Source: Hevea brasiliensis
Taxonomy: Eukaryota > Streptophyta > Magnoliopsida > Malpighiales > Euphorbiaceae
Assembly (NCBI RefSeq): GCF_030052815.1
Contig: NC_079501.1
Location: 84,081,849-84,145,848 of the forward strand
Direction of reading: 5' to 3'
DNA length: 64,000 nt
Shown here: positions 15,040 through 42,813 of the stretch, piece by piece
Position numbering within the stretch: the stretch's first letter is position 1
How the letters are laid out: every line of letters starts with the position of its first letter
Notes under the pieces: generated by a model
Databases searched by the model: none
Told to the model about the DNA's origin: nothing
What the model saw: only the letters and a program-made list of their open reading frames with translations
Program-made: the position numbers and the translations under genes

Positions 15040-15476
15040 CAACATGGACATTTTTGTTGAACAACAAGGCTCAGACTCCTCTTGTCCTTTCTACATTCCT
15101 CAATACCGTACAAAGTCAATACCAAACTACTGTCAAGACCATATGCAGTGATAATGGGACTGAATTTATCAACTCCACATGCCAACAATTTTTCAATACA
15201 AAAGGGATTATTCATCAAAAGACATGAACTTATTCCCCACGGTAGAATAAGGTAGTTGAATGAAAGCACCAACACTTTCTCCAAGTGGCCTGCTCTCTAA
15301 TGTTCCAATCACACTTACCATCAAAGTTTTGGGGTGATTCCTTTCTTATAGCTACCCTTCTTATCAATCGCATTCCTTTAAGAATTTTAAATTGTAAAAC
15401 TCCTTTTAAGATGCCTAATGGGTGCCCTCCTAATTACTCTTTCATCAAAACCTTTGGATGTCTTTGCTACGCTACA
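15040..15476 (+). pseudogene. pol: Old Copia pol fragment, part 1 (integrase core)
   Basis: The translation shows integrase core signatures: the end of the first strand region (TWTFLLNNK), the second catalytic Asp in CSDNGTEF at about 15150, and the FWGDSFLIAT and FGCLCYAT blocks at 15330 and 15455-15476. Stops near 15222 and 15245 lie around the site of the catalytic Glu, and a frame change before 15285 shows it is inactive. Coding stops abruptly at the Gypsy A LTR and resumes in frame after 45334, allowing for the 5-bp duplication. No LTR or gag of this element was found upstream. Confidence 0.85.
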
Positions 15477-19100: not shown

Positions 19101-19169
19101 TAGGCTCTCTTGCCAATAAGGAAAAGCACAAACCTATTGGCATAAAAAGCACTCCTCACATCTCTTGCT

Positions 19170-20940: not shown

Positions 20941-21350
20941 TGTCGCAAGGGATTTTGCGGTCGCCTGAACGAACCCCCACCGAAGTGGAAAAGAGTGAGG
21001 AGTCGCCACCTTAGTTTTGAGGGAAACTAAAGAAAACCATTTGTGAAGATAAATTGAAATAAAACCACTTCAAAACAGAGATTCTAAGTTCGGGGTTCGC
21101 AAACAGGTGGGAAGGTGTTAGGCACCCCACCTCGTCCCTTAATAAGGGTAAGTAGATTTAACTTTGCATTCTTTATAAATTAGTTAGGAGGGCTTGAATA
21201 GAAATGTTAATCCTTTTAACAAAAAGGAATATTTGATTTTTCACTAAATTCGGATTACCCAGATACATAAGTAAATGAGACAACCTTAGTGAGTTACTGT
21301 TGTGTGTTAATTTTGTTTGAAGGGGCTATTTGGTTAAAATTCAATTTGAG

Positions 21351-21788
21351 AATCGGATAAGAACTCTCCTCCGATCTCTTTTAGATTAAGATTCGAATTT
21401 TGGATCGAATAAGAACTCTTCTCCGATCACTTTTAAAATTTTGGATTGAGAATCGGATAAGAACTCTCCTCCGATCTCTTTTAATTAAAATTTTGGGTTC
21501 TCCTCCGATCTCTTTTAAATGTTTGTTAAAGTTTTTAAGTGAGAATCGGATAAGGACTCTCCTCCGATTTCTTTTAAATATTTATTAAAATTCTAGCTTG
21601 AGGATCGGATAAGAACTCTCCTCCGACCTCTTTTAAATATTTATTAAAATTTTTAGTCTGAGAACCGGATAAGAACTCTCCTCCGATCTCTTTTTAAATA
21701 TTAAAATTTTTAGTTTGAGATCCGGATAAGAACTCTCCTCCGATCTCTTTTATTTTAATGAGACTCGGATAAAGACTCTTCCGATCTC
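21351..21788. repeat. Tandem array with inverted ATCGGA/TCCGAT words in Ogre 3' LTR
   Basis: Eight full units and one partial unit of about 50-60 bp each contain ATCGGATAAGAACTCTCC followed by TCCGAT, so each could fold into a 6-bp stem with a 12-base loop. Units are separated by TTTTAAAT-type AT-rich linkers. The right LTR has the matching array at 37605-38008 without the partial unit. Confidence 0.85.
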
Positions 21789-23432
21789 TCTGAAATTTGA
21801 TCACAACTATATATCATAAGAGTCTAAGTTTAAGAGTTCTAATATTTAAAAACGCCAAGGGTCGTAATGAGACTTCTTTTAACTCATTGATACTTTGTGA
21901 CTAAATAAGGGATGCCGGACTGAATTTTACCGACTTCCTATATGGTCGCCTTACCAGTATCCTATCCGTTCCATTCTACTTATCTGAGATTTTATTCCGT
22001 CTTATGGCATTATGCCGGATCGCCTTCTTCGTCAGCCTAGTGATTCAATTTGGCTATTTCCCCTGACGTGTTATTTAGACCCTCTTTTCAAAGAGACCTC
22101 TAAAGTACAGTTACCTATTTTATCCTAACCACTTACATATTATTCGAGACTAGATGACTTGCGTTCAAAAATAATAAAGATCAACAAAAATATGGATTGG
22201 CCGACGCGGAAGCAAACCAGAGCACAACCCATCTTCGCATTTTCAAGTATGATATGACCATAAAGAAAATAACATGCATAAAAAAAAATAAAAAAAAGAA
22301 AGGAAATACGTAAAACGAGAACTAAACTTAATAAAATAGGATTATGAACACTGACCTGTAAGGAGTCGAATCTTAATGGGCTAACTACGGAATCACAGAT
22401 CGTAATAAAATCGCTAGTGGATAGCCGGGAGACTAAGGTTTGCCTTGGAACAAAGAATACTTCACTAAATACAATCGAGTCAGAACTATGCCCGAGTTTA
22501 AATGAGATTGAGCGTGGACGACGGAAATAAAAATGCAGATAACCAGGAACTAAAAACAGAAAAAAATGGGAACGCTACAGGATAATGAAAGAGCTGAAAA
22601 TGAAAAGTTTCAGTGTTCAAAATCTTTTTTTTAAGAAAATACTTCAGAAAACTGGTTCCAAAAGTTCTTCTTATGAAAGCAGAGTAATGATCTGAATTAA
22701 ATTTCAGAGTTCTTCCGCTATAGTAACAACCTTCTTTTTTTCGTCCGTCCCCTGAACAGTTTTTCATGCAGGTATTTATAGGAACCGGGTGCTCTCCATG
22801 AAGGGTCAAGATCTATTTTGAGGGAGATGGAGGGTCAGGATTTCAAAGGACATGATCGGATGCTTGAAAATTAAAGAGAATCAAAATGAACGGCCGAGAT
22901 CATTCTTATGATACTTGTCCTTTTCTTCTTCTAATCTGACGGTCCGAAACTTCGTTGACCTGGGCGATCCAAGGGCTAGGAATAAAAGGCGCCGGTCTTG
23001 TCGTCTTCTCCTTTGATCTAAAGGCTCTGGACTCGTCCTTGCAAGTGAGACCGACGGTGGAGATTGGGATGTACAGGACTGTCATGACATACTCTGGCAC
23101 CTGTCAGCATTGTGGGCGATTCTCAGGCGTGCGGTAGAGATTTCATATGCAACGCTTTAACTACCTTAGTTCTGATTCTGACGACGGTTATTGGGATTTG
23201 TCTTATTCTTTTTGCCTTTCGATCTCCCCTCTTTCTGATCTTCTTGGCATGCGCCCTTTTTGATCTTTCATACCGATCTCCCCTCTTCCGATCTCTATGA
23301 TTCCGATCCTTTCCTTAGTCAGGCCTGGTCCGGTCAAAGCATTAATTTCCCCCGATTCTTGAAGCGTCTTCCCCTCGATTCTCGAAGCGTCCGCTTCGCT
23401 TTCTGCTTAGCAATAAATGCCCGATTTTCCCC

Positions 23433-23440
23433 TATATATA
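23433..23440 (+). promoter_or_regulatory. TATA box upstream of small antisense LTR ORF (left)
   Basis: TATATATA in CCC-TATATATA-CCCC context lies about 115 bp before the ATG at 23555. It is conserved at 39653-39660. Its orientation is antisense to the Ogre gag-pol. Confidence 0.5.
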
Positions 23441-23554
23441 CCCCTGACAGAAGAAACTTTCCTCATTCGATTTTCCTCTCTCCCTTCTCCCTTTCCTGTT
23501 TTAGCTGCTCCGGTGATAGTTCCGGCTACAACTGTGGCTTTTGATCCCTTTCCG

Positions 23555-23797
23555 ATGGACTTCTTTATTCCCCGACTGAAAATTTACAATCCCGGTGACC
23601 GAATGGTCGTGATAACCTTATCTGATGATGGTGAGAGAATTGCTAAAGTTCCACCGATCCTTGGCAGTTGCTCTTTCAAATTTATTCGGCTTTTCATCAC
23701 ATTGGGTGTTCCGACAGCGGCTTTCCTCCACATTGGGTGTTCCGACAGCGGCTCGGTTCGCTGTCGGTTACATCCTTTGGATCAGTCACAATGTTGA
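23555..23797 (+). CDS. Small antisense ORF in Ogre 3' LTR, unknown function
   Basis: The 80-codon ORF begins MDFFIPRLKIY and is preceded by a TATA box. I do not recognise the family. A 31-bp direct duplication (CACATTGGGTGTTCCG..., units starting at 23698 and 23729) shifts the frame near its end; the other frame after the second copy remains open with a hydrophobic stretch (VGYILWISHNV), so the ancestral protein was probably slightly different at its C-terminus. The right LTR copy at 39775-40017 has the same length and the same duplication, so the duplication predates insertion. It could be non-coding leader sequence instead. Confidence 0.4.
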   Translation: MDFFIPRLKIYNPGDRMVVITLSDDGERIAKVPPILGSCSFKFIRLFITLGVPTAAFLHIGCSDSGSVRCRLHPLDQSQC

Positions 23798-24242
23798 CTT
23801 TCACGTAGCCCCCCCCCCCCCCTTTTTAGATAGGATGTTCTGCTGATCTTTAGAGATCGGCCTTTTGATGTAATCAGATTTTTAATGTAATCCGATTTTA
23901 AGATCGCCCAAATGATGTAATCTGACTTTTAGAAATGTAATCCGATCTCTTGAGATCGCCCAAATGATGTAATCCGATCTTTTGGAAATAAAAATCTTAT
24001 TTCGCCAATTATCATCTTATTGATTATTTTTCGATCTCTGATGTATTTATCCGATCTAGTTCCTAACAAAACAACCCTTAACTGATCCTTTATTCAAAAT
24101 GTTCATGTTAATATGCCGATTTTCGATTAACCGTTCTCTTTATGTAATTTTGGAATGTTCGAGAGACGTGTCAGAACAGCTGGCGAATCCCGCTAACCGA
24201 TGCATTGCCTGGGACATCATGAGCATTAAATGCTCGGACGAG

Positions 24243-24250
24243 TATAAATA
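24243..24250 (+). promoter_or_regulatory. TATA box of antisense LTR gene (left)
   Basis: TATAAATA followed by GGGGTGGGGG lies about 155 bp before the ATG at 24407 and is conserved at 40475-40482. GTAAGG at about 24356 between the TATA box and the ATG could be a leader splice donor. Confidence 0.6.
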
Positions 24251-24406
24251 GGGGTGGGGGTTAGCCAGTTTCTCACTTATGCCATTTTCTGTCTCTCGCA
24301 AACAATTCCAAAATTCTCTCGATTTTCAAGCTCTTCCGATTCCGATCAAGCTCCGGTAAGGGTTTTGATCCCTCTTTTACTTTTGAGTTCTTTATTTCTT
24401 TTGAAA

Positions 24407-26278
24407 ATGAGCGGTGCCGAAAGTCAGAGAGCGGCAAGCCCACTTTCCATCCATGTTTCATGGTCGTCCGACGAAGCGGAGGTGGTTGGACCAAGCGCAC
24501 AACCTGAACCCCCTAGGGCCTCTGTTCAAGTTCGGGAGCGAGCAGAACCTTCAAGGCATGTGCATTCTTTAGGGAGGGAAAGTCTTCCTGTAGACGAGCT
24601 ACCGTCGATCCTTCAAGAAGCCGACCTACAATCGTTTAGCCAAGAATACAACATTCGGCCCGATTCGTACGAGCTAATTAAGTGCCACGGCGATTTTCGT
24701 GCCGATCACTTCTTCGAAGAGAATGATATGCTCATGGTCTACGAAGAACAATTAAAAGCCGGTCTGCGGTTCCCTCTAGACGATTTTTTCAAAAAGGTCT
24801 TAAAATTTCACCAAGTGTGCATCGCCCAAGTTCACCCGAACTCGTGGCGGATCCTGGTGGCTTTCAGGGGGCTCTGCCGTGCCAAGGGACTCTATCCTAC
24901 AGCCAAAGTATTTGCCGAACTACATAGACTAACCCGCCGAAAGGATGACGAGTACTGGTTCTTTCAAGCGAAGCCTCATTGTGGGCTCTTTACCGATCTG
25001 CCCTCCTCCTTGAAGAATTGTAAGAACCGCTTCTTTATTCTGAGGAGAAAAATTCCGAACGGCTTCGAGGGCTTCCCTCGAAGCTGGCTACATCTGAACC
25101 CTTCGCGTCCAAAGCATCTCGCCCTGAATAGGGAAGAGGGAGCCGTGGTGATGGAATTGAAAGATCAAGCGGCTAGGGAGAAGTTTTCTTGTTTGGATGC
25201 AGTGACAGCCGAACTGCATCATTGGACGATGCAGCTGATCACTGGTCAAGATCGGGAGCTTCAACTCTCTGACCTCGGCATCGGTATTTTCTACATCTCA
25301 GATCTCGGGACCTTAGTGATCTCACTGACCTCTCTTTTGTGCAGGTATGGCAAGAGACGAAGCCTCCAAGAAGAAACGGAAGCGAAAGAGGGAGATCTCC
25401 CGGAAGGTGCGAGAGATGAAGCGATCCTCACTACTTCAAGCGCCCGGTCATGAGCCTGGGGAAATACAAGAAGGCTCGTCTCAGCCTTTGGGGCAGCCGA
25501 TCCCCGAGGTAGAAGTGATCCGATCTCCTCCTCGTTAAGAAGAGCCGCCTCCACCTCCTCCAGTTACTTCGGGCGCGGAAGGGGTTCCTTCCCAACAACA
25601 GGCGAGGCCCCTTTCTCGCGGTGCTCAAGTACTGCTCAATTCACTAGAGAAGAGTCGAACGGTCCGAGAGAATCCGGGCTTTGCTAAAGTGCTGGCGTGC
25701 TCTTTCTGCCTTCGAGAAGATCGGGATAGGCTGTCTCCGGATAGCCTTGATGATATCTTGACCAGATCTATGAGCTTGAACGTTGAGTGTTTGGTGAATT
25801 AGCACATGATCCGGGAGAAGGCGCATCGGCTGGGTAAAGAGGTCGAGAGGATAGGTCATGAAGCAGCTTCCCTCCGATCTCAACTATCATCCGCCCAGAA
25901 CTATATATCCAACATCGAGGGGCAAATGAAACTTTATGAGGATAAGCTAGCCGAGCAGACTCATGTCTGGCTGAGCGAACTCGTATTCTGGAAGAAGTTC
26001 AGGCGCTTCGGGCTGATGAAGTTGCTCAACTTGCTCACCTTGCTGAGGGGCTCAAAGAGAAAGAGGAAGAGATAGTGACTGGAGTGGCCGGCGCTTGTGT
26101 GAATGCCCACAGAGATCTCCTGACTGAGCTCAAGAAGCGTTACCCGGAGGAAGATTTCTCCTGGATGGCCAAGCTGGCTCTCGAGGATGAAGATGAGGAG
26201 AGTGAGGAGGAGGCTGAGGGTGAGAGGGGAAACGGACAAAATGTAAATCAGGCTGGGGGTGATCCTCCAGCTGAATAA
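24407..26278 (+). pseudogene. Antisense gene in Ogre 3' LTR, 'putative gypsy-type transposon' (Transposase_28-like) family
   Basis: The reading runs opposite to gag-pol. Exon 1 starts at ATG 24407 (MSGAESQR) and holds a globular region (about 24600-25200) with FRADHFFEEND, FPLDDFFKKVLKF and RRKDDEYWFF, which resembles plant proteins annotated as putative gypsy-type transposon. Exon 2 starts at 25345 after the acceptor TTTTGTGCAG; donors at 25245 or 25284 (introns of 100 or 61 nt) both keep frame. Exon 2 begins very basic (KKKRKRKRE), continues as a Pro-rich then coiled-coil-like region and ends in a Glu-rich acidic tail at TAA 26276-26278. Lesions here: TAA 25536-25538, TAG 25800-25802 and a one-base loss near 25966. 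The first is absent from the right copy; the second lies in the segment deleted there. Function unknown. Confidence 0.72.
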
Positions 26279-26857
26279 CTTGTACAAATTTTGAAATGAA
26301 ATGAAATAGAATGCCTCTTTTGTTCGAAGAATGGTTGTGATCGGAACACTTGATTGTTTGAGTATGTTGAAATAACTGAGAGTGATTATTAACCCAAGTG
26401 GGAGAGATCGGAAAACACAATGAGCATGAGATCGGTAGAGAACCAACGCTAAACGGGACTTAATTAAAATTGAAAATTTGGCTTGAACATTTGAGATCGG
26501 GATCATCATTAAACCGAAACGGAACCTTTGAATATTCTTAAATTTTTGAAAGGGGGATCGGCAATAAAATTGGTAACAAGGACCTAGTGTTTGTCAACAG
26601 AGATCGGGAATACACTTGACTGGTCTGAAGATTCGACAGGGTTTGAGAGATCGGTGAGTGATTTAATAGACCGGTAAGGCTTAGACTGATGTGAGGACTT
26701 AGCATTGATTCAATTCCTTGTGAGGAGAGATCGGAAATGTGGTTATCTAGCAAGGAGGGATCGAAAATGTGATTGGCTGTCAAAGGGAGACTTAGTACTG
26801 GGGATCGGTTTCGAAGTTTATTGATTCTGGGGGATCGGCCAAAATATGGTGTCGACA

Positions 26858-26870
26858 GCTGCCCCTCTTT
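26858..26870 (-). other. Polypurine tract of Ogre element
   Basis: On the minus strand AAAGAGGGGCAGC abuts the 3' LTR start TGTCGACACC. It would prime plus-strand synthesis. Confidence 0.88.
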
Positions 26871-27024
26871 ACATAATTTCTATTAAAGGGAAAAATTTTC
26901 TGTGTAGGAATTATGTAAAGATTCAGACCCATATTTTGGACGATTAGGTGTTCGAAGTTAGGGAACTAAAGCATACCTAAGTTAGTGACCTAGAGATTGT
27001 CAACAGAAGTTAAAATACTTTAAA

Positions 27025-27787
27025 ATCAACTTGGATCAAGGAACCAGGGGTTGATATTCAGGAAATTTAAATTGCAGGAAATTAAAATCAACTTAGATCA
27101 AGGAACCAGAGGTTGATAACAGGAAATTTAAATTGCTGGAAATTAAAATCAACTTAGATCAAGGAACCAGAGGTTGATAGCAGGAAGTTTAAATTGCTGG
27201 AAATTAAAATCAACTTAGATCAAGGAACCAGAGGTTGATAGCAGGAAATGTAAATTGCAGGAAATTAAAATCAACTTAGATCAAGGAACCAGAGGTTGAT
27301 AGCAGGAAATGTAAATTGCAGGAAATTAAAATCAACTTAGATCAAGGAACCAGAGGTTGATAGCAGGAAATGTAAATTGCAGGAAATTAAAATCAACTTA
27401 GATCAAGGAACCAGGGGTTGATAGCAGGAAATGTAAATTGCAGGAAATTAAAATCAACTTAGATCAAGGAACCAGAGGTTGATAGCAGGAAATGTAAATT
27501 GTAGGAAATTAAAATCAACTTAGATCAAGGTTTGCAGGAAATTAAAATCAACTTAGATCAAGGAACCAGAGGTTGATAGCAGGAAATGTAAATTGTAGGA
27601 AATTAAAATCAACTTAGATCAAGGAACCAGAGGTTGATAGCAGGAAATGTAAATTGCAGGAAATTAAAATCAATTTAGATCAAGGAACCAGAGGTTGATA
27701 GCAGGAAATATAAATTGCAGGAAATTAAAATCAACTTAGATCAAGGAACCAGAGGTTGATAGCAGGAAATGTAAATTGCACTTACAA
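27025..27787 (-). repeat. 61-bp tandem array in Ogre 3' untranslated region
   Basis: About 13 units share AAAATCAACTTAGATCAAGG, GAACCAGAGGTTGATAGCAG and GGAAATGTAAATTGCAGG. The start-to-start spacing is 61 bp over at least seven successive units (for example 27089, 27150, 27211, 27272, 27333). One unit near 27516-27535 is truncated and the first units are more diverged, so the array is freshest in the middle. It lies between the coding region and the 3' LTR, where Tat/Ogre elements are known to carry variable tandem repeats. Confidence 0.95.
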
Positions 27788-27899
27788 AGCGAGCCTAATC
27801 CGGACACAAGAAGTTCTTCCCCAACGAAGTGTACTTAACAGAATCTCGAAGGTCAATGATGAATGGAGGACGAGTTGAAAGACTTGACCTATGACTACC

Positions 27900-28522
27900 A
27901 TTTCTTCAAATCCTCCTTTTTTCCCGAAAAGCGCCCTTGCTGGTTTTCACTTTTCTTTTTTCTATATGACTAGAAGTGCCCTTCTGGGTTTTCATCCCTA
28001 GTTTTTTTTTTTTTTTTTTTTTTCGATGCCCTTTCGGGTCTTCACTTCCCCTTTGTCTATGTGACTAGAAGCGCCCTTCCGGGTTTTCACCTCTAGTCCT
28101 TTTTTGTGTACCCTTTTCGAGACCATTCCCCGCAAATCTCATAGTAAAGTACGTGAGGTTATCAATTTTCCAATCCTAATCTTATGGCAAAATTTTAACT
28201 GATTAATAGCGCATTAAACAAAGAGAAAGGATAGTATTAAAGAGTGAGTAAACAGGAAAGAATAAAAGCAGAAGGAATAAAGTATAACTTTATTATGGTT
28301 TTAGAAAAAAAACAAGGATAGACTTTCAAAGGAAAAAGGGGACAAGGATAGATCTCACATATTCCATATGATTGGCTTTGAAAACCCTTAATCGCCATTA
28401 TTTCAAGTTCTCTGAAGCCTTATGCCGTGACAGTTTCCTCTTCATCCTGGTTTCCTGCCCCCCATTCCTTATTTCTCCCTTTTTGTTCTTGGGATGCCCT
28501 TTTGGGTTTTCACCCCTAGGCC

Positions 28523-28556
<34 letters not shown>

Positions 28557-28690
28557 CATGCTTGCTCTTTTAGGATGCCCTTTCGGGTTTTCATCCTTCA
28601 CTCATTTTACAGAAAGCGCCCCTTCGGGGTTTTCGCCTTCTTTTCCACATTTTGCTAGGAGCGCCCTTTCGGGTTTTCACCCCTACCCTT
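27900..28690 (-). repeat. Dispersed GCCC/GAAA repeat family and poly(T) tracts, Ogre 3' untranslated region
   Basis: Eight imperfect copies of GCGCCCTTTCGGGTTTTCAC occur near 27930, 27972, 28025, 28070, 28490, 28573, 28615 and 28660. In element orientation each reads GTGAAAACCCGAAAGGGCGC, which places a GAAA tetraloop between CCC and GGG. Long T runs lie at 28003-28023, 28527-28556 and 28690-28702. The segment 28095-28480 between the two clusters shows nothing codable. Confidence 0.8.
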
Positions 28691-28699
28691 TTTTTTTTT

Positions 28700-31600
28700 T
28701 TAGGCATAGTATCTCTTGACAGTGTCAGCATTCACCGGTCTTGGAAATTCTTCTCCATCCATGTGGGTCAAGATCAAGGCTCCTCCAAAAAATGCCTTTT
28801 TAACCACATAGGGTCCCTCGTAGGTTGGTGACCATTTGCCCCGGGGATCGTTTTGATTCGGCAGCACTTTCTTCAGAACTAGGTCCCCGGGTTGGAATTC
28901 GCGTGGGCGAACGCTTTTGTCAAATGCCCTAGCCATTCTCCTTTGGTATAATTGCCCATGACATGCCGCTGTTAACCTTTTCTCATCCAGCAAGTTTAAC
29001 TGATCCAACCTCGACTGGATCCATTCTGACTCATCAATCCCTGATTCCCTCAGAATCCTTAGGGAAGGAATTTCAACTTCAATAGGTAATACTGCTTCCA
29101 TCCCATAAACCAGTGAGTATGGAGTTGCCCCTGTTGAGGTTCTCACAGAAGTCCGGTATGCGTGAAGAGCTTAGGGAAGCATATCATGCCAATCCCTATA
29201 TGTGATGGTCATTTTCCAGATTATCCTCTTTAGATTTTTATTTGCGGCTTCCACCGCTCCATTCATCTGGGGACGGTATGGGGAGGAATTGAGATGTCGA
29301 ATTTTGTATTGATCACACAATTTTTGAATCTTTGGACCATTGAGATTCTTGGCGTTGTTAGTGATGATTTCATTGGGGAGACCATGCCGGCAGATGATAG
29401 TGCTTCTGAGGAATTTAAGAAACGTGTTCTGTGTGATGTGAGCATAGGATGTCGCCTCGACCCACTTGGAGAAATAGTCGATGGCTACAAGGATGAATCT
29501 GTGCCCATTGGATGCCTTGGGATTGATGGGACCAATCACATCGATGCCCCACATTGCGAAAGGCCATGGTGAGATGAGGTTGAACAACTTGTGAGGTGGC
29601 ACGTTTATCGGATCGACATAAATCTGACACTTATGGCACTTTCGGAAATACTCGATGCAATCCTTTTCCATTGTGGTCCAAAAATACCCCCGTCGCATAA
29701 TTTGCTTAGCCATCATGTGCCCATTGGCATGGGTTGCACAATTTCCCTCATGAGTCTCAAAAAGGATCCTCTTCTCCTCTTTTGCATCCACACATCTCAA
29801 CAATTCGCCGTTGGAGTTCCTCTTGTATAGGACTTCTCCACTGGGGAAGTATCCCAGTGCTAATCTTTGGATCATCCTCTTTTCGTTTTTGCTTGCCCCC
29901 GAAGGGAATTCTCTGGTTCTGCAATAGATCAGGATGTCATGATACCAAGGCTTACCATCGGGCTCTTCTTCAATCATGAAGCAATAAGCTGGCTCATCCC
30001 TTGCTTTAATCCTCAATACTTGGGTTGTCTGCCCCTCTTCCATTTGGGCCATAAATTGATTCTTGTCTCTACTAAGGTGAGTGAAAGAGATTTCTTTGAA
30101 TTTCTTAATCAGCTCCAGTAAGTACTTCTGGTATGGGATTAGCTTCGGATCCTTGGTTTGCCATTCCCCTTTGACTTGATAAATAATCAGGGCTGAGTCT
30201 CCATATACCTCCAACTTCCTGATTTCCATTTTGATGGCAGCTTGTAGACCCATCACACAAGCTTCGTATTCTGCGACGTTGTTGGTGCAGTCAAATCTCA
30301 ACTTAATGGCTATCGGAAAGTGTTTTCCATCCGGGGATATCAATACAGCTCCAATTCCATTACCGGACAAATTGACAGCTCCATCGAAATACATTTCCCA
30401 TACATCGGCTGGCCCCTCTTCTTCGTAGTCTACTTCATTAATATGCTCATCAGGGAACTCAAAATCCAGAGCTTCGTAATCCTGGATAGGATTTTCTGCT
30501 AAGAGGTCAGTGATTACGCTACCTTTCACCGCTTTCCGGGTCATATAGACTATGTCATATTGGGAGAGTATAACCTGCCACTTGGCTATCCTACCTGGCA
30601 CGAATGGGCTTTCGAATACATATTTGATAGGATCCATCCTGGAGATGAGCCATGTCTGGTGATTCAACATGTAGTGCTTGAGGCGGTTTGCTGTCTAGGC
30701 TAACACGCAGCAAGTCTTTTCTAAGAAAGAGTACCTTGACTCACAATCATTGAACTTCTTGCTCAGGTAATAAATAGCCCTCTCCTTTCGGCCGGTATCA
30801 TCATGTTGTCCCAAAACGCATCCCATCGAGTTCTGTTGGACCGCCATATACAGGATAAGAGGCCTCCCCGCCACGGGTGGAACCAATACTGGTGGGCTTG
30901 ACAAGTATTGCTTGATTTTCTCAAAAGCCTCTTGGCAAACTAAATCCCATTGGGTGGAGTTGTTCTTCCGGAGTAGTCTGAAAATAGGCTCAGCTTTGGC
31001 AGTGAGGTTGGAAATAAACCTTGATATGTAGTTCAATTTTCCCAGGAAACTGCGCACCTCCCTTTCTGTTCTTGGGGGTGGCATCTCTTGAATAGCTCGA
31101 ACCTTGTCTGGATCAACTTCTATTCCCCTATCACTTACTATGAATCCCAACAACTTTCCAGATCTAGCTCTGAATATGCATTTGGCAGGGTTCAGTTTCA
31201 GCTGATATTTCCTGAGCCTTTCGAATACCCTCCTCATTACCTGAACGTGGCTCTCTTCTCCCCTGGATTTGATGATCATATCATCCACGTACACCTCCAC
31301 TTCTTTATGCATCATATCGTGGAATAATGTGACCATTGCGCGCTGGTAGGTAGCACCAGCATTCTTCAACCCTAAAGGCATGACCCGATAGCAAAATACT
31401 CCCCATTGAGTGATGAAAGCAGTTTTATCCTTGTCTTCCTTGTCCATTGGGATTTGATTGTACCTTGATGCCCCATCAATACATGAACACCTACCTAATC
31501 CCGCAGCATTGTCTACTAACACATCAATGTGGGGGAGAGGGAAATCGTCTTTCAAGCTTGCTTTATTAAGATCCCTGTAGTCAACGCACACCCTGACTCT

Positions 31601-32061
31601 CCCGTCCTTCTTCATTACCGGGACGATGTTAGCCACCCATTGGGGGTATTTGACCACTTCCAGGAACCCAGCGTCATACTGTTTCTTGACTGCATCCCGA
31701 ACTTTGAGCAGTGTGTTGGGATTCATTCTCCTTAACTTCTGCTTTACCGGGACTGTCCCCGGAATTAGGGGAATTTTGTGCGTTACTATCTGGGGGTCCA
31801 AACCAACCATATCATCATAGCTCTAGGAAAATACGTCGAGGAATTCTTTAAGCAGACTGATCATATCTCCCAATTCTTCACTCTCCACTACCTTAAGTTC
31901 CCTTTTTACTTCTTCTGTGCCTAAGTTTATGGTGTGCGTTTCATCTTCACAAGGCACTAGGGAGGGTTCATCCTTTTCATTGCATTCTTCTGTAAGGTCT
32001 TCCTCAAAATCACTTGAAGTAATGGCAGTTATGGGGATTTCAAAATTAACCAGAGGAATTT
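28700..32061 (-). pseudogene. pol: Ogre pol: RT, RNase H, archaeal-type RNase H, integrase
   Basis: One frame holds everything from about 32059 to TAA/stop at 28700. RT (31800-31000) shows VPVMKKDGRVRVCVDYRDL, FPLPHIDVLVD and the catalytic VYVDDMIIKS; the connection region has GKLLGFIVSDRGIEVD. A first RNase H (30880-30690) is followed by an archaeal-type RNase H (about 30400-30030, WEMYFDGAVN, NNVAEYEA), the Tat hallmark. Integrase has its HHCC finger (29760-29620), WGIDVIGP, then NGAVEAAN for the Glu; the second catalytic Asp is Asn (codon 29357-29359). Stops: TAG 31823-31825, TAG 30695-30697 (both at Trp positions) and TAA 29171-29173. The archaeal-type RNase H lacks the expected ADALA-like block after KNQF near 30055. 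Confidence 0.93.
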
Positions 32062-32283
32062 CTGAGTCTATTGGATTATTAAGTGTTAATTGATGAATGG
32101 TCCTGAATGAATAAGAATAGAACGTATTATAAGGATGGAATTCAAAAGGAAAGAAAGAGAATTGGATTTAAAATGCGCTATTAATTCATTAATGTTTATG
32201 CCATAAGAAAAAGGTCCATTTACAGTATTACACTTGTCACAATGGACAAAATGATCAAGTGTAGATAACCAAAAGTACTTTAC
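32062..32283 (-). other. Intron-like non-coding segment between Ogre gag and RT
   Basis: The segment starts with donor-like GTAAAG just after the gag end and ends with acceptor-like TAGACTCAG, and is full of stops on the minus strand. Ogre elements are known to have an intron near the gag-pro/RT boundary. Joining these exact sites would leave the two frames one base out of register, so either an indel has occurred or the boundary differs. Short imperfect direct repeats flank it (32283-32303 and 32039-32059). Confidence 0.5.
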
Positions 32284-34045
32284 TCGAAATTAAGTATAGG
32301 GATGTCCTCTGCTGTCCAGTTGCCCAGTTCTTGCTCCTCAGCTATTGGCGAGACTAGAGCTCCATACAAGGAATCCAGGTAGATGACATCGATGGATGGT
32401 TCTAGGGGAGATTCTTTGCTTTCATCCCCAAGTTCTATCATATTCACGCCATTGCCTGTACCATGAGTGGGCAATGGGTTTGACGTGACATTGGGGAGGG
32501 AACCATTCCCTTCAATCTTCAGCCACCCGTTCCGGATTAAAGCGTGCACCCTCCCCCTGAGTGCTCCGCAGTTGTCAGTTGAATGCCCTTGTGCCCTTCC
32601 GTGATACTCACAACGGGCAGTGGCATCATACCACCTGGGATATGGAGGCTGAATTGGGTCTAGGGGAACTGGTACTATCTGATTTATACCGACAAGATAT
32701 CGGTATATTTCACTGAGCGGGAGGGGAAGAGGTGGATCAGGGTTTCTTGGGGGCCTTGGGTTATTTTGTGGTGGTCTTGGTTGAGCAAGAGGAGGAGGTG
32801 GTCTAGGTTGGTAATTTGTTGGTGGGGGATACTGCGGGCGTGGGTGTGGATAATTCGGGAAAGAAGGCGAAATGTTTGCGATGGTTTGGCCATGAGGGGA
32901 AGGATATGGCCGGTAGTTATTTTGGGGAAGTGGGGAGTAATTATTTTGCCAGGTGATGGAATGCACATCACCCTCCTTTTTCTTGCCAAAATTAGCAGTC
33001 TTCTTTGCAGGGTTCTCAGCCAACTCCTGCAGTCGTCCCATTCTTAAATTGGCCTCTATTCTTTCACCGGCCTGGATGATGTCAGAGAAGCTGTTGGAAG
33101 TGTTCCCAATCATCAAATTGAAATAGGGGGCCTTCAATGTCTCAATGAACAGGGAACATAGTTCATTGTCGATCCTTGGGTGTACTTACGCCTTTTCTCT
33201 CCATCTCTGGTCATACTACTTGAAGATTTACCTGTCTTTCGCACTGTTACGGAGGTCCTCCTTGTGGGGGCCACATCGCAATTAAACTTATGCTGCTTGA
33301 GGAAAGCATCTGCCAAATCTTTCCAGGAGCGTAGTTTGCTCCTGTCTAACTGAATGCACCACCTCAGGGCTGCCTCGGAGAGGCTCTCATGAAAGAAGTG
33401 GACTAACAGTCTGTCATCATCTGTCAGAGCGGACATCTTGGCGATATAGGTGGCCAAGTGAATGCGAGGGTCCGAATTCCCAGTATACTTGTCGAAATCA
33501 GGGACCTTGAACTTAGGCGGCACCACCACATCAAGAACCAATCTAAGCGATGCCACATTGACTGAACCATACATATTTAGTCCTTCGATTGCCCTCAATC
33601 TCTCCTCTAGAGCAGATAGTTTCTCGCTTTCTTTTGTCTTATTTTCCCCTCCCACTGCATGGAATACTCCCCCAGTTGGGAGATGAGGGGCGGAGTGTAC
33701 TGGTGGGATTAGGATTGAAGGGTATGGGTCGGTGTTTGAAACAGCTGGGTAATGAGAGTAAGGTAAGTCATTATTTATGGTAGCCAGATTGACAGTGATT
33801 GTCGGGTCCGGAATAGGTGACTGAAAGGTAAAAGAAGTTGAAGCTTGATAGGGATCCATTGTTGTAGGTGGTGGAGGAGGTAGTGGTAGGCTAGGCTCTG
33901 AAGCGGGTTTATTCTGGGACATTTCCCTCATTAGTCTCATAAGTTCTGAGACCTGATCCTTCAATTCAGAAACCTGCCCTTGTAGGTTCTGTACTTGTTC
34001 CTGATCTTCCATTATCTTCTTTGTTCGAGATCTTGTTAAGTACAC
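32280..34045 (-). pseudogene. gag: Ogre gag
   Basis: ATG at 34045 opens a frame with an N-terminal coiled coil (LQGQVSELKDQVSELMRLM), a Pro-rich linker, then the retrotransposon gag capsid region (FKVPDFDKYTGNSDPRIHL near 33510, KDLADAFLKQHKF near 33290). A one-base loss near 33262 shifts the frame, which resumes with IGNTSNSFSDIIQAGERI near 33100. A very Pro-rich stretch (32860-32700) precedes the Cys/His finger CEYHGRAQGHSTDNC near 32610. Further stops occur between 33260 and 33160. The gag ends at 32280 with no protease after it. Confidence 0.9.
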
Positions 34046-34440
34046 TCGCTTGGGTTGAACCGTGTGCTTGGTCAGACTTGCCTTGTTTGGAGCAATGTTG
34101 ATTTCCTGTAAGGAAGTAAAAAACTTTTAATAAATTTTGGATTTCGTAAAAAAAAAACTAAAGGTCCTGGTTCGGACGAAGGATACTGTGGCATCTGGGA
34201 GCCAAAATGGGGTCTGGAGAAGGATAATTGCATCAATTTTATCATGGCATTGTTCGATAGTCTGACGGTGAATGACTGGATTGAACACGTCTCTATGGTA
34301 CTTGTCCATATGGCGCTTCCAACTTTTCGCATAACCCTAACGAGGGAGTACCTACGGGAGTCATACTATCCATTCACAATTTTGCTAAACAATGGTCCAA
34401 AAATCATTTCATTAATTGAATAATTTGTACACCGTATTCT

Positions 34441-36336
34441 TTACATCGGCCTAGGCTCTGGGAGATTCTTTATAATGAGATGACATTTTCTGAGATACTC
34501 ATATAACCTTTCTTCTTGCTTGGCAGGGTCGAATGCTTTCAGAGCATATTCGGATTCGGGTAATAGTTCTTGTTTTCCCTGTGCTATCGTTCTCTCCAGC
34601 TGGTCAACATTTTCTTTCAGTTCTTGATAGAGAGCAGCTTGTCTTTCTTTCTCTTTCCTTTCCTTAGCACACTCTTTCAAGATATCGTTGATGAGTAGTG
34701 CCTGTTCTTTCAATTCGAGCTTATTCTTTTTGTTTTCTTGCTTATACTCTTCAACGAGTATTCCTTGGTATTTCATTTTTTCCTGAAGCTTACTATTCTG
34801 TACTTCTACTTCTTTTACTACAGCTTGGAGAGAGTCTTTTTCCTTTTCCCACCGTACCTCTTACTCTTCGAACCCCATCTTTTCGGCCCTTGCCTCTTCC
34901 CTGAGTCTTCTCACCTTTCTTTTAAGGTTCTGCCGTTGGTCCTCCAACTGTTTTATTTGTTCTTGCAGTTGTGAGTTTTCGGTATTTGCCTTTTGTAGTG
35001 AGTCAGCCAGACGATTATCAGCTTCTACTACTAGGATGCTTCGGCGAGGGTCATTGTCTTCGAATTCCGCAGTTGAGTGTTCTTAGTCCCTGTCAGCCCT
35101 CCATTTAAGATAATCGAGTGTGGCACTTGGACCTTTAGGCGACCTTTCCATCAGAGAGATGTTTTCCCAAGACCTGCGAGCCATTTTCAACCCTTCCTCT
35201 TCCTTGAGCTCATGGTAGAAATGACCTTGGTGGTATTCTTCAATGTTGATTCTGGATTGTGTTGAGCCAAACTGCCTCATTACCAATGCCAGAGTGTAAC
35301 TTGTGTATCCGGTTACTCCGATTAGGGATACCGACTGATTACCTCCCGTGTTGATCAAAACAGATTGGCCTGACACTCACAGTTTCCTCCAACAGTAATC
35401 ATGACTATTGAAACTCAAAATCCGTTCCTGCCACTGCTGTTCATTTTTTGGACTGATTACTAACCGGGTCATCTTCTCAATGGGAGGCTGGTCAAGGTAC
35501 CAAGTCAATCCCTTTGTCTCCATAGGACACATGTGACTGATAATCCAGAGGTACAACAATTGAGAACAACACTTAATGGACCCTTTGCCCTGTTGTCTGC
35601 AGTAGGTAAGGGTTAACAAGGTCTCTGCAAGAATTGCCGGTATCGGATTGACCTCCTGCTTTTCTACTGCCCAGAATACTTCCACCGTGCTGCAAGTTAT
35701 GATTCCCAATGGTCCCGGGAACAAAATCAGGCCATAGATTCCCAATGCGAGTGCCGCTGAAGCTCGATCCCACTGTTTCTCTTGGAGGTATTGATCTAAC
35801 CACTTATTGAGATGTGTCTAATACCAACCATGCGTGTTTCCTTTGACAGTTTCTTTTGCCTTTACTTCTTCTGGGGAAGTACCCAACATATGTGCCAATC
35901 GTTTCCAGGTCTGCCTATGCTCGAGGTGTAGGTAGATCCGATTCTGCGATGAATAAGGAATCTCTAGTAATGCCTGATATTCTTCCATAGTGGGAACTGT
36001 ATCAATATCATTGAAAGAGAATACCCCGTACTTAGGACTCCAAACCGACAGCATGGCCTTTAATGCCGGGATTTGGACCTTAACTCGCATTAAAGTTGCA
36101 ATCCTCCCGTACTTCTCCTCAAATCGTGCCTTGACCTGATCGGGAAGCGACCTCCAACCATTAGACAGACCCTCGAGGCTGTTCATTCTAACCTCAATTT
36201 TATTCAGATCCAACGAAGGTAATAAACTAACATGTGTCTTGGAAACATCATTTTGCGGGGGTACTGGAGTATGAGCTGACTTGGACCAAAGTTTAGCATT
36301 CTGAACCTCTTCTGCCGACTGACTCGAGGATGCCAT
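34441..36336 (-). pseudogene. Ogre ORF1 (extra ORF upstream of gag)
   Basis: ATG at 36336 (MASSSQSAEEVQN) starts a frame of about 632 codons to TAA at 34441-34443. The N-terminal globular part has FSFNDIDTVPTMEEYQALL near 36000 and ALGIYGLILFPG near 35740, features of the DUF7745-like ORF1 protein of Ogre elements. From about 35080 the protein becomes a long Glu/Lys-rich coiled coil. Four single-base stops interrupt the frame: TAG 35818-35820, TGA 35377-35379, TAA 35083-35085 and TAA 34861-34863. Its role in the life cycle is unknown; position upstream of gag is diagnostic for the lineage. Confidence 0.85.
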
Positions 36337-37172
36337 GATAAAAATGATGCCTATCCTTTTTACAGACTTTTGGTTTGGTGATGCCTGCAGGAAAAATTCG
36401 TTAGCAGGATAAATTTGGGTAATTTTAAATCATACTGTACACATTTATCAAAGTAGGAAAATGTTTAGGTGTTTTAGTAGAATTCAAGATTACCCTCACA
36501 AAAACGAACAAAAGGAAATTAAAGCAGAACAAGGTAAGAGTAAGTATGCCCCTTTTGTCCTAAAATAGGGAGACTCCTGATACCGGATGAGTGCTACCTA
36601 ATTGGATAGTTCTATCTTATAAGGTAGCTTACTACGGCTTTCAGCTATCGTGATAGTTTAGCTCATGGTATAATTTTCTAAAAGCCACAGGTTCCCAAAT
36701 TGCCCCTACTGTAAACAGTAGAGCCCCATTCTATAACCATGATATTAACGGGAAAATTCCACGGGTATCACAGTGAATAGAACGAGTTTCAATTTGAGCA
36801 GAAGCCTTCACGGATACTAACGGGGTAGAACCCACGGGTACCACTACATGACCCCCTCCTACTTTCCTAAAAGGGTAAGAAAGCCCGGGTATAGGGCTGA
36901 AGTGTGTGAGGACATTGCGTGAGTGTTCAGTGTGTGAAGGGACATCTTTACCTCTTCCCAATTCAAGGGGATTTTATTTTTCCATTTTTCTTCTTTTTTT
37001 TTTTTTTAAATGAAGAGCACTGTAAGGAGTAAAACAAGCAAAACAAGCAGAACAGTTAGTAGGAATAAACAATAATTAACACATAAAATATTGCCGGGTG
37101 AGCCCACCTAACTATAATTTAATCGAAAAATTAAATCTACTTTTGGACCTCTAGACCGGGGTTAAGATAAAC
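36337..37172 (-). other. Ogre 5' leader
   Basis: No credible ORF is present. The stretch lies between the primer site and ORF1 and contains an A/T-run near 36990-37005. It would be the untranslated RNA leader with packaging signals, though none can be identified by eye. Confidence 0.7.
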
Positions 37173-37191
37173 GTCCCCAGCGGAGTCGCCA
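37173..37191 (-). other. Primer binding site, tRNA-Arg type, Ogre
   Basis: On the minus strand TGGCGACTCCGCTGGGGAC lies three bases after the 5' LTR end. This is the tRNA-Arg primer sequence characteristic of Ogre elements. Confidence 0.88.
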
Positions 37192-37604
37192 AGCTGTCGC
37201 AAGGGATTTTGCGGTCACCTGAACGAACCCCCACCGAAGTGGAAAAGAGTGAGGAGTCGCCACCTTAGTTTTGAGGGAAACTAAAGAAAACCATTTGTGA
37301 AGATAAATTGAAATAAAACCACTTCAAAACAGAGATTCTAAGTTCAGGGTCCACAAACGGGTGGGGAAGGTGTTAGGCACCCCACATCGTCCCTTAATAA
37401 GGGTAAGTAGATTTAACTTTGCATTCTTTATAAATTAGTTAGGAGGGCTTGAATAGAAATGTTAATCCTTTTAAAAAAAGGAATATTTGTTTTTTCACTA
37501 AATTCGGATTACCCAGATACATAAGTAAATGAGACAACCTTAGTGAGTTACTGTTGTGTGTTAATTTTGTTTGAAGGGGCTATTTGGTTAAAATTCAATT
37601 TGAA

Positions 37605-38008
37605 AATCGGATAAGAACTCTCCTTCGATCTCTTTTAGATTAAGATTTGAATTTTGGATCGAATAAGAACTCTTCTCCGATCACTTTTAAAATTTTGGAT
37701 TGAGAATCGGATAAGAACTCTCCTCCGATCTCTTTTAAATGTTTGTTAAAGTTTTTAAGTGAGAATCGGATAAGGACTCTCCTCCGATCTCTTTTAAATA
37801 TTTATTAAAATTCTAGCTTGAGGATCGGATAAGAACTCTCCTCCGACCTCTTTTAAATATTTATTAAAATTTTTAGTCTGAGAACCGGATAAGAACTCTC
37901 CTCCGATCTCTTTTTAAATATTAAAATTTTTAGTTTGAGATCCGGATAAGAACTCTCCTCCGATCTCTTTTATTTTAATGAGACTCGGATAAAGACTCTT
38001 CCGATCTC
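37605..38008. repeat. Tandem array with inverted ATCGGA/TCCGAT words in Ogre 5' LTR
   Basis: Eight units match those at 21351-21788; the extra partial unit of the left array is absent here, so the array has changed by unit gain or loss since insertion. Confidence 0.85.
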
Positions 38009-39652
38009 TCCAAAATTTGATCACAACTATATATCATAAGAGTCTAAGTTTAAGAGTTCTAATATTTAAAAACGCCAAGGGTCGTAATGAGACTTCTTTT
38101 AACTCATTGATACTTTGTGACTAAATAAGGGATGCCGGACTGAATTTTACCGACTTCCCATATGGTCGCCTTACCAGTATCCTATCCGTTCCATTCTACT
38201 TATCTGAGATTTTATTCCGTCTTATGGCATTATGCCGGATCGCCTTCTTCGTCAGCCTAGTGATTTAATTTGGCCATTTCCCCTGACGTGTTATTTAGAC
38301 CCTCTTTTCAAAGAGACCTCTAAAGTACAGTTACCTATTTTATCCTAACCACTTACATATTATTCGGGACTAGATGACTTGCATTCAAAAATAATAAAGA
38401 TCAACAAAAATATGGATTGGCCGACGCAGAAGCAAACCAGAGCACAACCCATCTTCGCATTTTCAAGTATGATATGACCATAAAGAAAATAACATGCATA
38501 AAAAAAAATAAAAAAAAGAAAAGAAATATGTAAAACGAGAACTAAACTTAATAAAATAGCATTATGAACACTGACCTGTAAGGAGTCGAATCTTAATGGG
38601 CTAACTACGGAATCACAGATCGTAATAAAATCGCTAGTGGATAGCCGGGAGACTAAGGTTCGCCTTGGAACAAAGAATACTTCACTAAATACAATCGAGT
38701 CAGAACTATGCCCGAGTTTAAATGAGATTGAGCGTGGACGATGGAAATAAAAATGCAGATAACCAGGAACTAAAAAAAGAAAAAAAATGGGAACGCTACA
38801 GGATAATGAACGAGCTGAAAATGAAAAGTTTCAGTGTTCAAAATCTTTTTTTTAAGAAAATACTTCAGAAAACTGGTTCCAAAAGTTCTTCTTATGAAAG
38901 CAGAGTAATGATCTGAATTAAATTTCAGAGTTCTTCCGCTATAGTAACAACCTTCTATTTTTCGTCCGTCCCTTGAACAGTTTTTCATGCAGGTATTTAT
39001 AGGAACCGGGTGCTCTCCATGAAGGGTCAAGATCTATTTTGAGGGAGATGGAGGGTCAGGATTTCAAAGGACATGATCGGATGCTTGAAAATTAAAGAGA
39101 ATCAAAATGAACGGCCGAGATCATTCTTATGATACTTGTCCTTTTCTTCTTCTAATCTGACGGTCCGAAACTTCGTTGACCTGGGCGATCCAAGGGCTGG
39201 GAATAAAGGCGCCGGTCTTGTCATCTTCTCCTTTGATCTAAAGGCTCTGGACTCGTCCTTGCAAGTGAGACCGACGGTGGAGATTGGGATGTACAGGACT
39301 GTCATGACATACTCTGGCACCTGTCAGCATTGTGGGTGATTCTCAAGCGTGCGGTAGAGATTTCGTCTGCAACGCTTTAACTACCTTGGTTCTGATTCTG
39401 ACGACGGTTATTGGGATTTGTCTTATTCTTTTTGCCTTCCGATCTCCCCTCTTTCTGATCTTCTTGGCACGCGCCCTTTTCGATCTTTCATACCGGTCTC
39501 CCCTCTTCTGATCTCTATGATTCCGATCCTTTCCTTAGTCAGGCCCGGTCCGGTCAAAGCATTAATTTCCCTCGATTCTCGAAGTGTCTTCCCCTCGATT
39601 CTCGAAGCGTCCGCTTCGCTTTCTGCTTGGCAATAAATGCCCGATTTTCCCC

Positions 39653-39660
39653 TATATATA
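39653..39660 (+). promoter_or_regulatory. TATA box upstream of small antisense LTR ORF (right)
   Basis: TATATATA in the same context as 23433-23440 on the left, about 115 bp before the ATG at 39775. Confidence 0.5.
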
Positions 39661-39774
39661 CCCCTGATAGAAGAAACTTTCTTCATTCGATTTTCCTCTC
39701 TCCCTTCTCCCTTTCCTGTTTTAGCTGCTCCGGCGATAGTTCCGGCTACAACTGTGGCTTTTGATCCCTTTCCG

Positions 39775-40017
39775 ATGGACTTCTTTATTCCCCGACTGAA
39801 AATTTATGATCCCGGTGACCGAATGGTCGTGATAACCTTATCTGATGATGGTGAGAGAATTGCTAAAGTTTCATCGATCCTTGGTGGTTGCTCTTTCAAA
39901 TTTATTCGGCTTTTCATCACATTGAGTGTTCCGACAGCGGCTTTCCTCCACATTGGGTGTTCCGACAGCGGCTCGGTTTGCTATCGGTTATATCCTTTGG
40001 ATCAGTCACAATGTTGA
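39775..40017 (+). CDS. Small antisense ORF in Ogre 5' LTR, unknown function
   Basis: The 80-codon ORF matches 23555-23797 with a handful of amino-acid changes and carries the same 31-bp internal duplication. A poly(C) run follows at about 40040-40052. The family is not recognised. Confidence 0.4.
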   Translation: MDFFIPRLKIYDPGDRMVVITLSDDGERIAKVSSILGGCSFKFIRLFITLSVPTAAFLHIGCSDSGSVCYRLYPLDQSQC

Positions 40018-40474
40018 CTTTGACGTAGCCCCGACGTGCCCCCCCCCCCCCCCTTTTTTAGATAGGATGTTCTGCTGATCTTTAGAGATCGGCTTTTTGA
40101 TGTAATCAGATTTTTAATGTAATCCGATCTTAAGATCGCCCAAATGATGTAATCTGACTTTTAGAAATGTAATCCGATCTCTTGAGATCGCCCAAATGAT
40201 GTAATTCGATCTTTTGGAAATAAAAATCTTATTTCGCCAATTATCATCTTATTGATTGTTTTCCGATCTCTGATGTATTTGTCCGATCTGGTTCCTAACA
40301 AAACAACCCTTAACTGATCCTTTATTCAAAATGTTCATGTTAATATGCCGATTTCCGATTAACCGTTCTCTTTATGTAATTTTGGAATGTTCGAGAGACG
40401 TGTCAGAACAGTTGGCGAATCCCGCTAACCGATGCATTGCCTGGGACATCGTGAGCATTAAATGCTTGGACGAG

Positions 40475-40482
40475 TATAAATA
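40475..40482 (+). promoter_or_regulatory. TATA box of antisense LTR gene (right)
   Basis: TATAAATA identical in context to 24243-24250, about 155 bp before the ATG at 40639. Confidence 0.6.
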
Positions 40483-40638
40483 GGGGTGGGGGTTAGCCAG
40501 TTTCTCACTTATGCCATTTTCTGTCTCTCGCAAACAATTCCAAAATTCTCCCGATTTTCAAGCTCTTCCGATTCCGATCAAGCTCCGGTAAGGGTTTTGA
40601 TCCCTCTTTTACTTTTGAGTTCTTTATTTCTTTTGAAA

Positions 40639-42234: not shown

Positions 42235-42813
42235 CTTGTACAAATTTTGAAATGAAATGAAATAGAATGCCTCTTTTGTTCGAAGAATGGTTGTGATCGG
42301 AACACTTGATTGTTTGAGTATGTTGAAATGACTGAGAGTGATTATTAACCCAAGTGTGAGAGATCGGAAAACACAATGAGCATGAGATCGGTAGAGAACC
42401 AACGCTAAACGGGACTTAATTAAAATTGAAAATTTGGCTTGAACATTTGAGATCGGGATCATCATTAAACCGAAACGGAACCTTTGAATATTCTTAAATT
42501 TTTGAAAGGGGGATCGGCAATAAAATTGGTAACAAGGACCTAGTGTTTGTCAACAGAGATCGGGAATACACTTGACTGGTCTGAAGATTCGACAGGGTTT
42601 GAGAGATCGGTGAGTGATTTAATAGACCGGTAAGGCTTAGACTGATGTGAGGACTTAGCATTGATTCAATTCCTTGTGAGGAGAGATCGGAAATGTGGTT
42701 ATCTAGCAAGGAGGGATCGAAAATGTGATTGGCTGTCAAAAGGAGACTTAGTACTGGGGATCGGTTTCGAAGTTTATTGATTCTGGGGGATCGGCCAAAA
42801 TATGGTGTCGACA

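What the first reader, a model, noticed from the sequence alone, without database searches (positions are those of the whole stretch)
24243..26278. Antisense, TATA-driven, spliced gene inside each Ogre LTR
Both LTRs carry a TATA box, a ~590-codon two-exon reading and a conserved short intron, all opposite to gag-pol. Two possible donors (25245, 25284) with one acceptor (25344) both preserve frame. Most disabling lesions differ between the copies, so the gene was apparently intact at insertion. Two antisense genes per element could interfere with gag-pol RNA, silence it, or provide a trans-acting function. Antisense ORFs are known in some Tat-lineage elements; placement within the LTR itself, duplicated with promoter, deserves attention.
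Basis: partly seen in the sequence, partly recalled or inferred. Interest (0 to 1): 0.85.

Follow-up and report, generated by a model that had tools for sequence, protein, structure and literature searches.

The report
Spliced gene inside a retrotransposon's LTR
A very large jumping element in what appears to be the rubber-tree genome carries a reverse-strand, intron-containing protein gene with its own promoter inside each of its two end repeats, and evolution has protected that protein, so the repeats look like carriers of a gene and not just switches.

Summary
A 22-kb Ogre-like (Tat-clade) element on the minus strand has a plus-strand gene in each LTR: TATA box, ATG, 292-codon exon 1 with Pfam Transposase_28, a 61-nt GT-AG intron and a coiled-coil exon 2. 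Both window copies are broken, and no shared lesion was seen. The genome (taken to be Hevea brasiliensis) holds more copies. Five of 42 are open through both exons. In exon 1 the nonsynonymous/synonymous count is 1.4-1.9 between LTRs of one element but about 0.5 between divergent elements, against about 2.5 expected if neutral: the protein was under purifying selection. LTR placement is confirmed by LTR ends, PPT, PBS, five solo LTRs with perfect TSDs, and a more distant subfamily. Antisense Transposase_28 ORFs are known from Retand elements, but between pol and the 3'LTR. What seems new is a whole spliced gene in U3, pointing away from the candidate gag-pol promoter and kept in solo LTRs. Its function is inferred, not shown.

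The parts
20941..26857 (-). 3' LTR (5917 bp); minus strand reads TGTCGACA...TGCGACA
   Evidence: self-BLAST and LTR alignment
37195..42813 (-). 5' LTR (5619 bp), 2.5% diverged from the 3' LTR
24243..24250 (+). TATA box of the antisense gene, 3'LTR copy (TATAAATA, 164 nt before the ATG)
   Evidence: a TATA at -157 to -165 in 42 of 42 copies
24407..25283 (+). exon 1, 3'LTR copy, open; 292 codons plus 1 nt; Transposase_28 at residues 111-175
25284..25344 (+). 61-nt GT-AG intron, 3'LTR copy
   Evidence: GT 42/42, AG 41/42; same junction in P0001
25345..26278 (+). exon 2, 3'LTR copy; basic start, coiled coil, acidic tail; broken by two stops and a 1-bp frameshift
   Evidence: coiled coil from the model of P0001
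40475..40482 (+). TATA box of the antisense gene, 5'LTR copy
40639..41515 (+). exon 1, 5'LTR copy, one in-frame stop
41516..41576 (+). 61-nt intron, 5'LTR copy
41577..42234 (+). exon 2, 5'LTR copy, two stops and a 277-bp deletion
22775..22780 (-). candidate sense (gag-pol) TATA box in the 3'LTR, LTR offset 4077; would place the gene in U3
   Evidence: also present in the 5'LTR; start site not tested
38996..39001 (-). candidate sense (gag-pol) TATA box in the 5'LTR
37173..37191 (-). primer binding site TGGCGACTCCGCTGGGGAC (tRNA-Arg type by recall)
26858..26880 (-). polypurine tract abutting the 3'LTR
35377..36429 (-). upstream extra ORF, DUF7745 (two pieces)
32280..34126 (-). gag region (Retrotrans_gag match at E 0.00039, under the Pfam cut-off)
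28700..31822 (-). pol: RT, RNase H, second RNase H (RVT_3), integrase
26950..27902 (.). 61-bp tandem repeats between pol and the 3'LTR

Best explanation
It is a real accessory protein gene of an Ogre-like (Tat-clade) LTR retrotransposon that lies wholly inside the LTR, most likely in U3, on the strand opposite gag-pol. Shown from sequence: its own TATA box, two exons, a conserved 61-nt GT-AG intron, a Transposase_28 domain; presence in both LTRs and in solo LTRs; purifying selection on the protein between elements and relaxation after insertion. Inferred: transcription starts near 24270 and runs away from the gag-pol promoter; the spliced mRNA makes a ~600-aa protein that enters the nucleus (basic stretch at the start of exon 2) and self-associates by its coiled coil; it acts in trans on the family's LTRs or pre-integration complexes, as an activator or a balancer of element expression. 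If the gene is in U3, genomic RNA carries it once (in the 3'LTR) and reverse transcription doubles it. The intron would survive because its splice signals are on the other strand from genomic RNA.
For: Pfam Transposase_28, E 7.8e-12. TATA 42/42, GT 42/42, AG at 61 nt 41/42, exon 1 open 31/42, both exons open 5/42 (sample chosen by protein score). Junction matches NCBI model P0001. Exon 1 pairwise dN/dS about 0.14 over 496 pairs of 32 copies, one per presumed element. N/S 0.48 in 16 disjoint between-element pairs against a neutral expectation of 2.56 and 1.38 in 8 LTR pairs, Fisher p 4e-11. A sample found by LTR DNA outside the gene: N/S falls from 1.48 (closest) to 0.54 (most diverged) over 351 pairs. 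Exon 2: LTR pairs 2.32, between elements 0.71-0.95 where S is 25 or more; 80 of 119 indels against one reference copy are multiples of 3, counted per copy. LTR end 1.9-2.5 kb after the ATG in 40 of 42, PPT next to it in 15. Of 8 copies tested at the other end, 5 are solo LTRs with perfect 5-bp TSDs and 2 have a PBS. Long helix in P0001's exon 2 part, 93 residues with pLDDT of 90 or more.
Against: No RNA evidence was available; P0001 is a gene model. The exon 1 fold failed (pLDDT 34). Nuclear location, DNA binding and trans action are untested; the basic stretch is read by eye. Most copies are decayed: 6 of 40 in the DNA-chosen sample have an intact exon 1. In exon 1, LTR pairs have N/S 1.38 and 1.86, under the neutral 2.1-2.6; sampling by protein score and wrong pairing may explain it. 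The sense promoter that defines U3 is a TATA match only.
Confidence: 0.66

Rival explanations
1. Cis-acting antisense RNA: the transcript, not the protein, regulates gag-pol by convergent transcription or dsRNA and small RNA at the 3'LTR.
For: Gag-pol RNA should run antisense through the 3'LTR copy; antisense RNA roles are proposed in the review PMC7264820.
Against: Selection is on amino acids and exon 2 indels mostly keep the frame (80 of 119). In the 5'LTR the two candidate promoters point apart. It may still act in addition.
Confidence: 0.15
2. Neutral passenger: an old captured gene now decaying in the LTR, with no role.
For: Both window copies are broken; most copies in the DNA-chosen sample have a broken exon 1 (34 of 40).
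Against: N/S of about 0.5 between divergent elements in exon 1, with higher values after insertion (exon 2); TATA and splice sites kept in 41-42 of 42.
Confidence: 0.03
3. The repeats are not LTRs but duplications, so the gene is not in the LTR.
For: The TSD of the window element matches in only 4 of 5 bases.
Against: TG..CA ends, PBS and PPT; 15 of 42 copies with the PPT at the same edge; five solo LTRs with perfect TSDs; same edge in two element pairs of a more distant subfamily.
Confidence: 0.01
4. The protein works at the pre-integration complex or in target choice rather than in transcription.
For: Proposals in PMC7264820; a coiled coil fits a structural role.
Against: No transposase-like fold was found; Foldseek with the P0001 model gave nothing with E below 6, and exon 1 could not be modelled.
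Confidence: 0.25

Closest known systems
Retand lineage antisense TRP28 (PF04195) ORFs (PMC11963269; passages seen)
   Same: Tat clade; ORF antisense to gag-pol; same Pfam domain; reported for 97% of recently active clusters; other antisense ORFs there carry Smc and similar domains
   Different: There the ORFs lie between pol and the 3'LTR; the word 'intron' does not occur in the text. Here the gene is wholly inside both LTRs, has an intron, and sits in an element with an upstream DUF7745 ORF.
Maize Grande gene23 (as told in PMC7264820; original not held)
   Same: antisense accessory gene with its own promoter; nuclear protein reported
   Different: between pol and the 3'LTR, not in the LTR
Ogre elements (PMC6317226; passages seen)
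   Same: very large, long LTRs, extra ORFs, tandem repeats, second RNase H between RH and INT
   Different: the plant mobile domain is reported in 57% of Ogre, Transposase_28 in 23% of Retand; no gene in the LTR is mentioned in the passages seen
HTLV-1 HBZ (PMC1459196; abstract seen)
   Same: spliced antisense transcript starting in the LTR, encoding a regulator of transcription; its bZIP coiled coil and nuclear site are recalled
   Different: only its first exon is in the 3'LTR; no homology claimed
HIV-1 LTR antisense gene (PMC1654176; abstract seen) and MMTV sag in the LTR (recalled)
   Same: protein gene located in an LTR
   Different: animal retroviruses, unrelated; MMTV sag is sense-oriented (recalled)

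Membership tests
Transposase_28 (PF04195) proteins | score above the Pfam cut-off | tested here: met
   45.7 bits against 26.2, residues 111-175
Retand lineage | antisense TRP28 ORF between pol and 3'LTR | tested here: not met
   the ORF is inside both LTRs
Retand lineage | RT phylogeny places the element in Retand | not tested
   no reference RT set was at hand
Ogre lineage | extra sense ORF upstream of gag | tested here: met
   DUF7745 ORF pieces at 35377-36429; that this marks Ogre is partly recalled
Ogre lineage | second RNase H between RH and INT | tested here: met
   RVT_3 before the integrase in 29171-30694; shared with Retand per PMC6317226
Ogre lineage | tRNA-Arg type PBS, large LTRs, tandem repeats before the 3'LTR | tested here: met
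   the tRNA assignment is recalled
Ogre lineage | RT phylogeny places the element in Ogre | not tested
   no reference RT set was at hand
LTR (location of the gene) | TG..CA ends, PBS, PPT, 5-bp TSD | tested here: met
   window TSD 4 of 5 bases, five solo LTRs 5 of 5

The most novel reading that the evidence does not exclude
The LTR of this family is a self-contained mobile gene: a divergently transcribed, spliced U3 gene that each integration duplicates and that survives as a free-standing locus when LTR recombination deletes gag-pol. Many solo and paired LTRs could then supply one trans-acting protein, so full elements, non-autonomous copies and solo LTRs would share a diffusible regulator, and a host could in principle co-opt a solo LTR as a ready-made gene.
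Probability: 0.3. Interest if true: 0.8.

Novelty: new variant of a known kind. Interest (0 to 1): 0.62.

Why it matters
LTRs of plant retrotransposons are usually treated as promoters and terminators. Here selection kept a spliced protein of about 600 residues inside the LTR. That makes the old question of what antisense Transposase_28 genes do directly testable: the same gene sits in paired LTRs and in solo LTRs, and post-insertion LTR pairs give a built-in neutral control. It also means that annotation that masks LTRs, or that calls such loci host genes (as NCBI's LOC131183419 seems to be), will mislabel them.

Tried and rejected
Alternative donor 25245: rejected, GT in 10 of 42. An intron-less copy at C18:1879114, suggested by an open frame of 593 aa: rejected, the 61-nt intron is present. 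Structure of exon 1: pLDDT 34, unused. Fold search of P0001: no match with E below 6. Profile search of solved structures: one weak match, E 0.043, ignored. Viral contigs: 9 stretches matched a pattern, none a relative. Homologues outside Hevea: none identified. Three proteins passed: P0001 from Hevea and two N-terminal pieces on short contigs whose species is not given; P0002 has a 95% match in this genome. DNA-chosen sample from the divergent subfamily (L043 query): not completed. RT search of the own genome: not completed. Rows dropped: L055, L065, L073 and L074 from the DNA-chosen sample because they aligned badly; with them kept, N/S between elements was 1.47 and rose again to 1.86 in the most diverged bin. 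L012/L013 and L016/L017 were left out of the LTR pairs, because both L012 and L013 carry a PPT and L016/L017 are not nearest neighbours; with them in, the ten pairs gave dN/dS 0.45. Of the nine same-element candidates, four had another copy as nearest neighbour. L010 was kept although its first codons are out of register.

Full report
What is there. The window holds a 22-kb Ty3/gypsy element on the minus strand: 5'LTR 37195-42813, internal part 26858-37194, 3'LTR 20941-26857. The LTRs differ at 138 of 5615 aligned sites (113 transitions, 25 transversions; K2P 0.025). They end in TG..CA; [quoted passage not shown] The flanking 5-mers are AGAGT and ATAGT, 4 of 5 alike. The internal part has an upstream ORF with DUF7745, a gag region (weak Pfam match), RT, RNase H, a second RNase H-like domain and integrase, and 61-bp tandem repeats near the 3'LTR. 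This is an Ogre-like Tat-clade layout; RT phylogeny was not tested.

The gene. On the plus strand each LTR has TATAAATA (24243; 40475), an ATG 164 nt later (24407; 40639), a 292-codon exon 1, a 61-nt intron (25284-25344; 41516-41576) and an exon 2 that ends at 26278 or 42234. Exon 1 carries Transposase_28 (45.7 bits, cut-off 26.2). The only named relative found, an NCBI Hevea model (P0001), joins the end of exon 1 to exon 2 at exactly this junction. G000, 1.88 Gb, has a contig of the same length as P0001's contig, so the genome is taken to be Hevea brasiliensis.

Copies. A protein search of the genome scored 135 of 17033 first-look candidates. I fetched 40 copies and added the window's two. 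TATA is present in 42 of 42, GT at 25284 in 42, AG 61 nt on in 41, ATG in 41, exon 1 without a stop in 31, both exons open in 5 (591-603 aa; one has a different tail). The window's two copies show no shared lesion, so the gene was probably intact at insertion; one stop of the 3'LTR copy lies where the 5'LTR copy is deleted and cannot be compared.

Location. After the gene the LTR edge was found in 40 of 42 copies (in L031 only as a partial match) and not in 2. The PPT follows in 15 and unrelated DNA in 25. For 8 of these 25, picked for an open exon 1, I fetched the other LTR end: 5 are solo LTRs with perfect 5-bp TSDs (read by eye from the printed flanks), 2 have a PBS (5'LTRs of full elements), 1 had no end in the stretch. 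The five solo LTRs have an open exon 1 but a broken exon 2. Same-strand pairs 13-20 kb apart number 10 among the 135 hits (0.034 expected by chance; two of the ten are doubtful as LTR pairs) and 5 among 150 hits of P0002 (0.042 expected; one opposite-strand pair also occurs). P0002 is 64% identical to the window's exon 1 over 70% of it; the hits that I read are 78-80% identical to P0002, and their identity to the window's exon 1 was not measured. In both P0002-type pairs that I read, one copy's LTR edge is followed by the PPT and the other's by unrelated DNA. So the LTR position seems older than the split of these subfamilies.

Selection. Between one copy per presumed element (32 copies, 496 pairs) mean dS is 0.451 and dN 0.064; dN/dS falls from 0.44 at dS below 0.1 to 0.12 above 0.5. 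With a mutation model taken from LTR sequence upstream of the gene in 8 LTR pairs, neutral exon 1 should give N/S of 2.52-2.58 (2.13-2.34 if all transitions are deaminations). The eight LTR pairs gave 1.38 and 16 disjoint between-element pairs 0.48; Fisher p is 4e-11. Frame +1 had the lowest ratio to neutral of the six frames (0.19); frame -2, which shares its third positions, had 0.26 but 141 stop-codon cells against 13. Because these copies were chosen by protein score, I took a second sample with an LTR piece outside the gene (40 hits scored of 4203). Of these 40 copies (two are the window's, eight others overlap the first set) 6 had an intact exon 1. After dropping 4 badly aligned rows and one of each candidate pair, 27 copies gave N/S 1.48, 1.09, 0.89, 0.57 and 0.54 with growing divergence over 351 pairs. 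Nine same-element candidates gave 1.86. Exon 2 behaves alike: 2.32 in LTR pairs, 1.55 in the closest and 0.71 in the most diverged between-element pairs, and 80 of 119 indels, counted per copy against one reference, are multiples of three. The intron is itself conserved (p-distance 0.145 against 0.33 at third positions of exon 1, 8 by 12 copies), mostly at its donor and its 3' half.

How it likely works. A minus-strand TATA (TATAAATACC), present in both LTRs, lies about 1.46 kb from the antisense TATA and points the other way. If it is the gag-pol promoter, the gene is wholly in U3, the two promoters are divergent, and only the 3'LTR copy is crossed by gag-pol RNA. Genomic RNA then carries the gene once and reverse transcription copies it into both LTRs (established retroelement replication). 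The intron is safe in genomic RNA because its signals are on the other strand (inference). The start of exon 2 is basic (KKRKRKREISRK), and P0001 models as a long helix, residues 173-307, with 93 residues at pLDDT 90 or more, so a nuclear, self-associating protein that acts on the element's LTRs or integration complexes is the best guess. That last step is not shown.

Relation to the known. Antisense Transposase_28 ORFs typify the Retand lineage: PMC11963269 reports them in 97% of clusters and places the antisense ORFs between pol and the 3'LTR (passages). [quoted passage not shown] PMC6317226 (passages) gives Transposase_28 for 23% of Retand and the plant mobile domain for 57% of Ogre. I found no report of such a gene inside a plant LTR in the listings of the searches; the 2011 survey of extra ORFs and the Grande paper are not held, so an earlier mention is possible. 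HTLV-1 HBZ (abstract) is the nearest functional parallel. A shift of the polypurine tract upstream of an internal antisense gene would explain how it came to lie in the LTR; this is untested.

Noticed in passing
15476-16433 and 44378-45335, with 17094-20905 and 42774-43208: The Ogre-like element is nested in what looks like another Ty3/gypsy element whose LTR-like repeats (93% alike) flank it; gag, RT and integrase pieces lie on the left side. The minus-strand ORF at 42774-43208 on the right had no Pfam match.
   Followed up: partly
2621-13445: A Ty1/copia element with 97.4% identical LTR-like repeats and, after pol, an extra sense ORF (9790-10842) with a sub-threshold match to Transposase_32.
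   Followed up: partly
50937-51548: A fragment of a UDP-glucosyltransferase gene.
   Followed up: no
37587-38009 and 21334-21796: An array of about 59-bp repeats near the downstream end of both LTRs.
   Followed up: no
23417-23797 and 39637-40017: A second plus-strand ORF of 126 codons, open in both LTRs, upstream of the antisense gene; it overlaps part of the stretch that I used as neutral reference.
   Followed up: no
L030, L040, L041 exon 2: Exon 2 stops after the same number of residues (175) in three copies, perhaps repeated deamination at one codon, or a shared short form.
   Followed up: no
genome-wide: First look for Transposase_28 in the genome gave 9594 candidates; 150 were scored and are listed, and the 14 control genomes had none.
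   Followed up: partly
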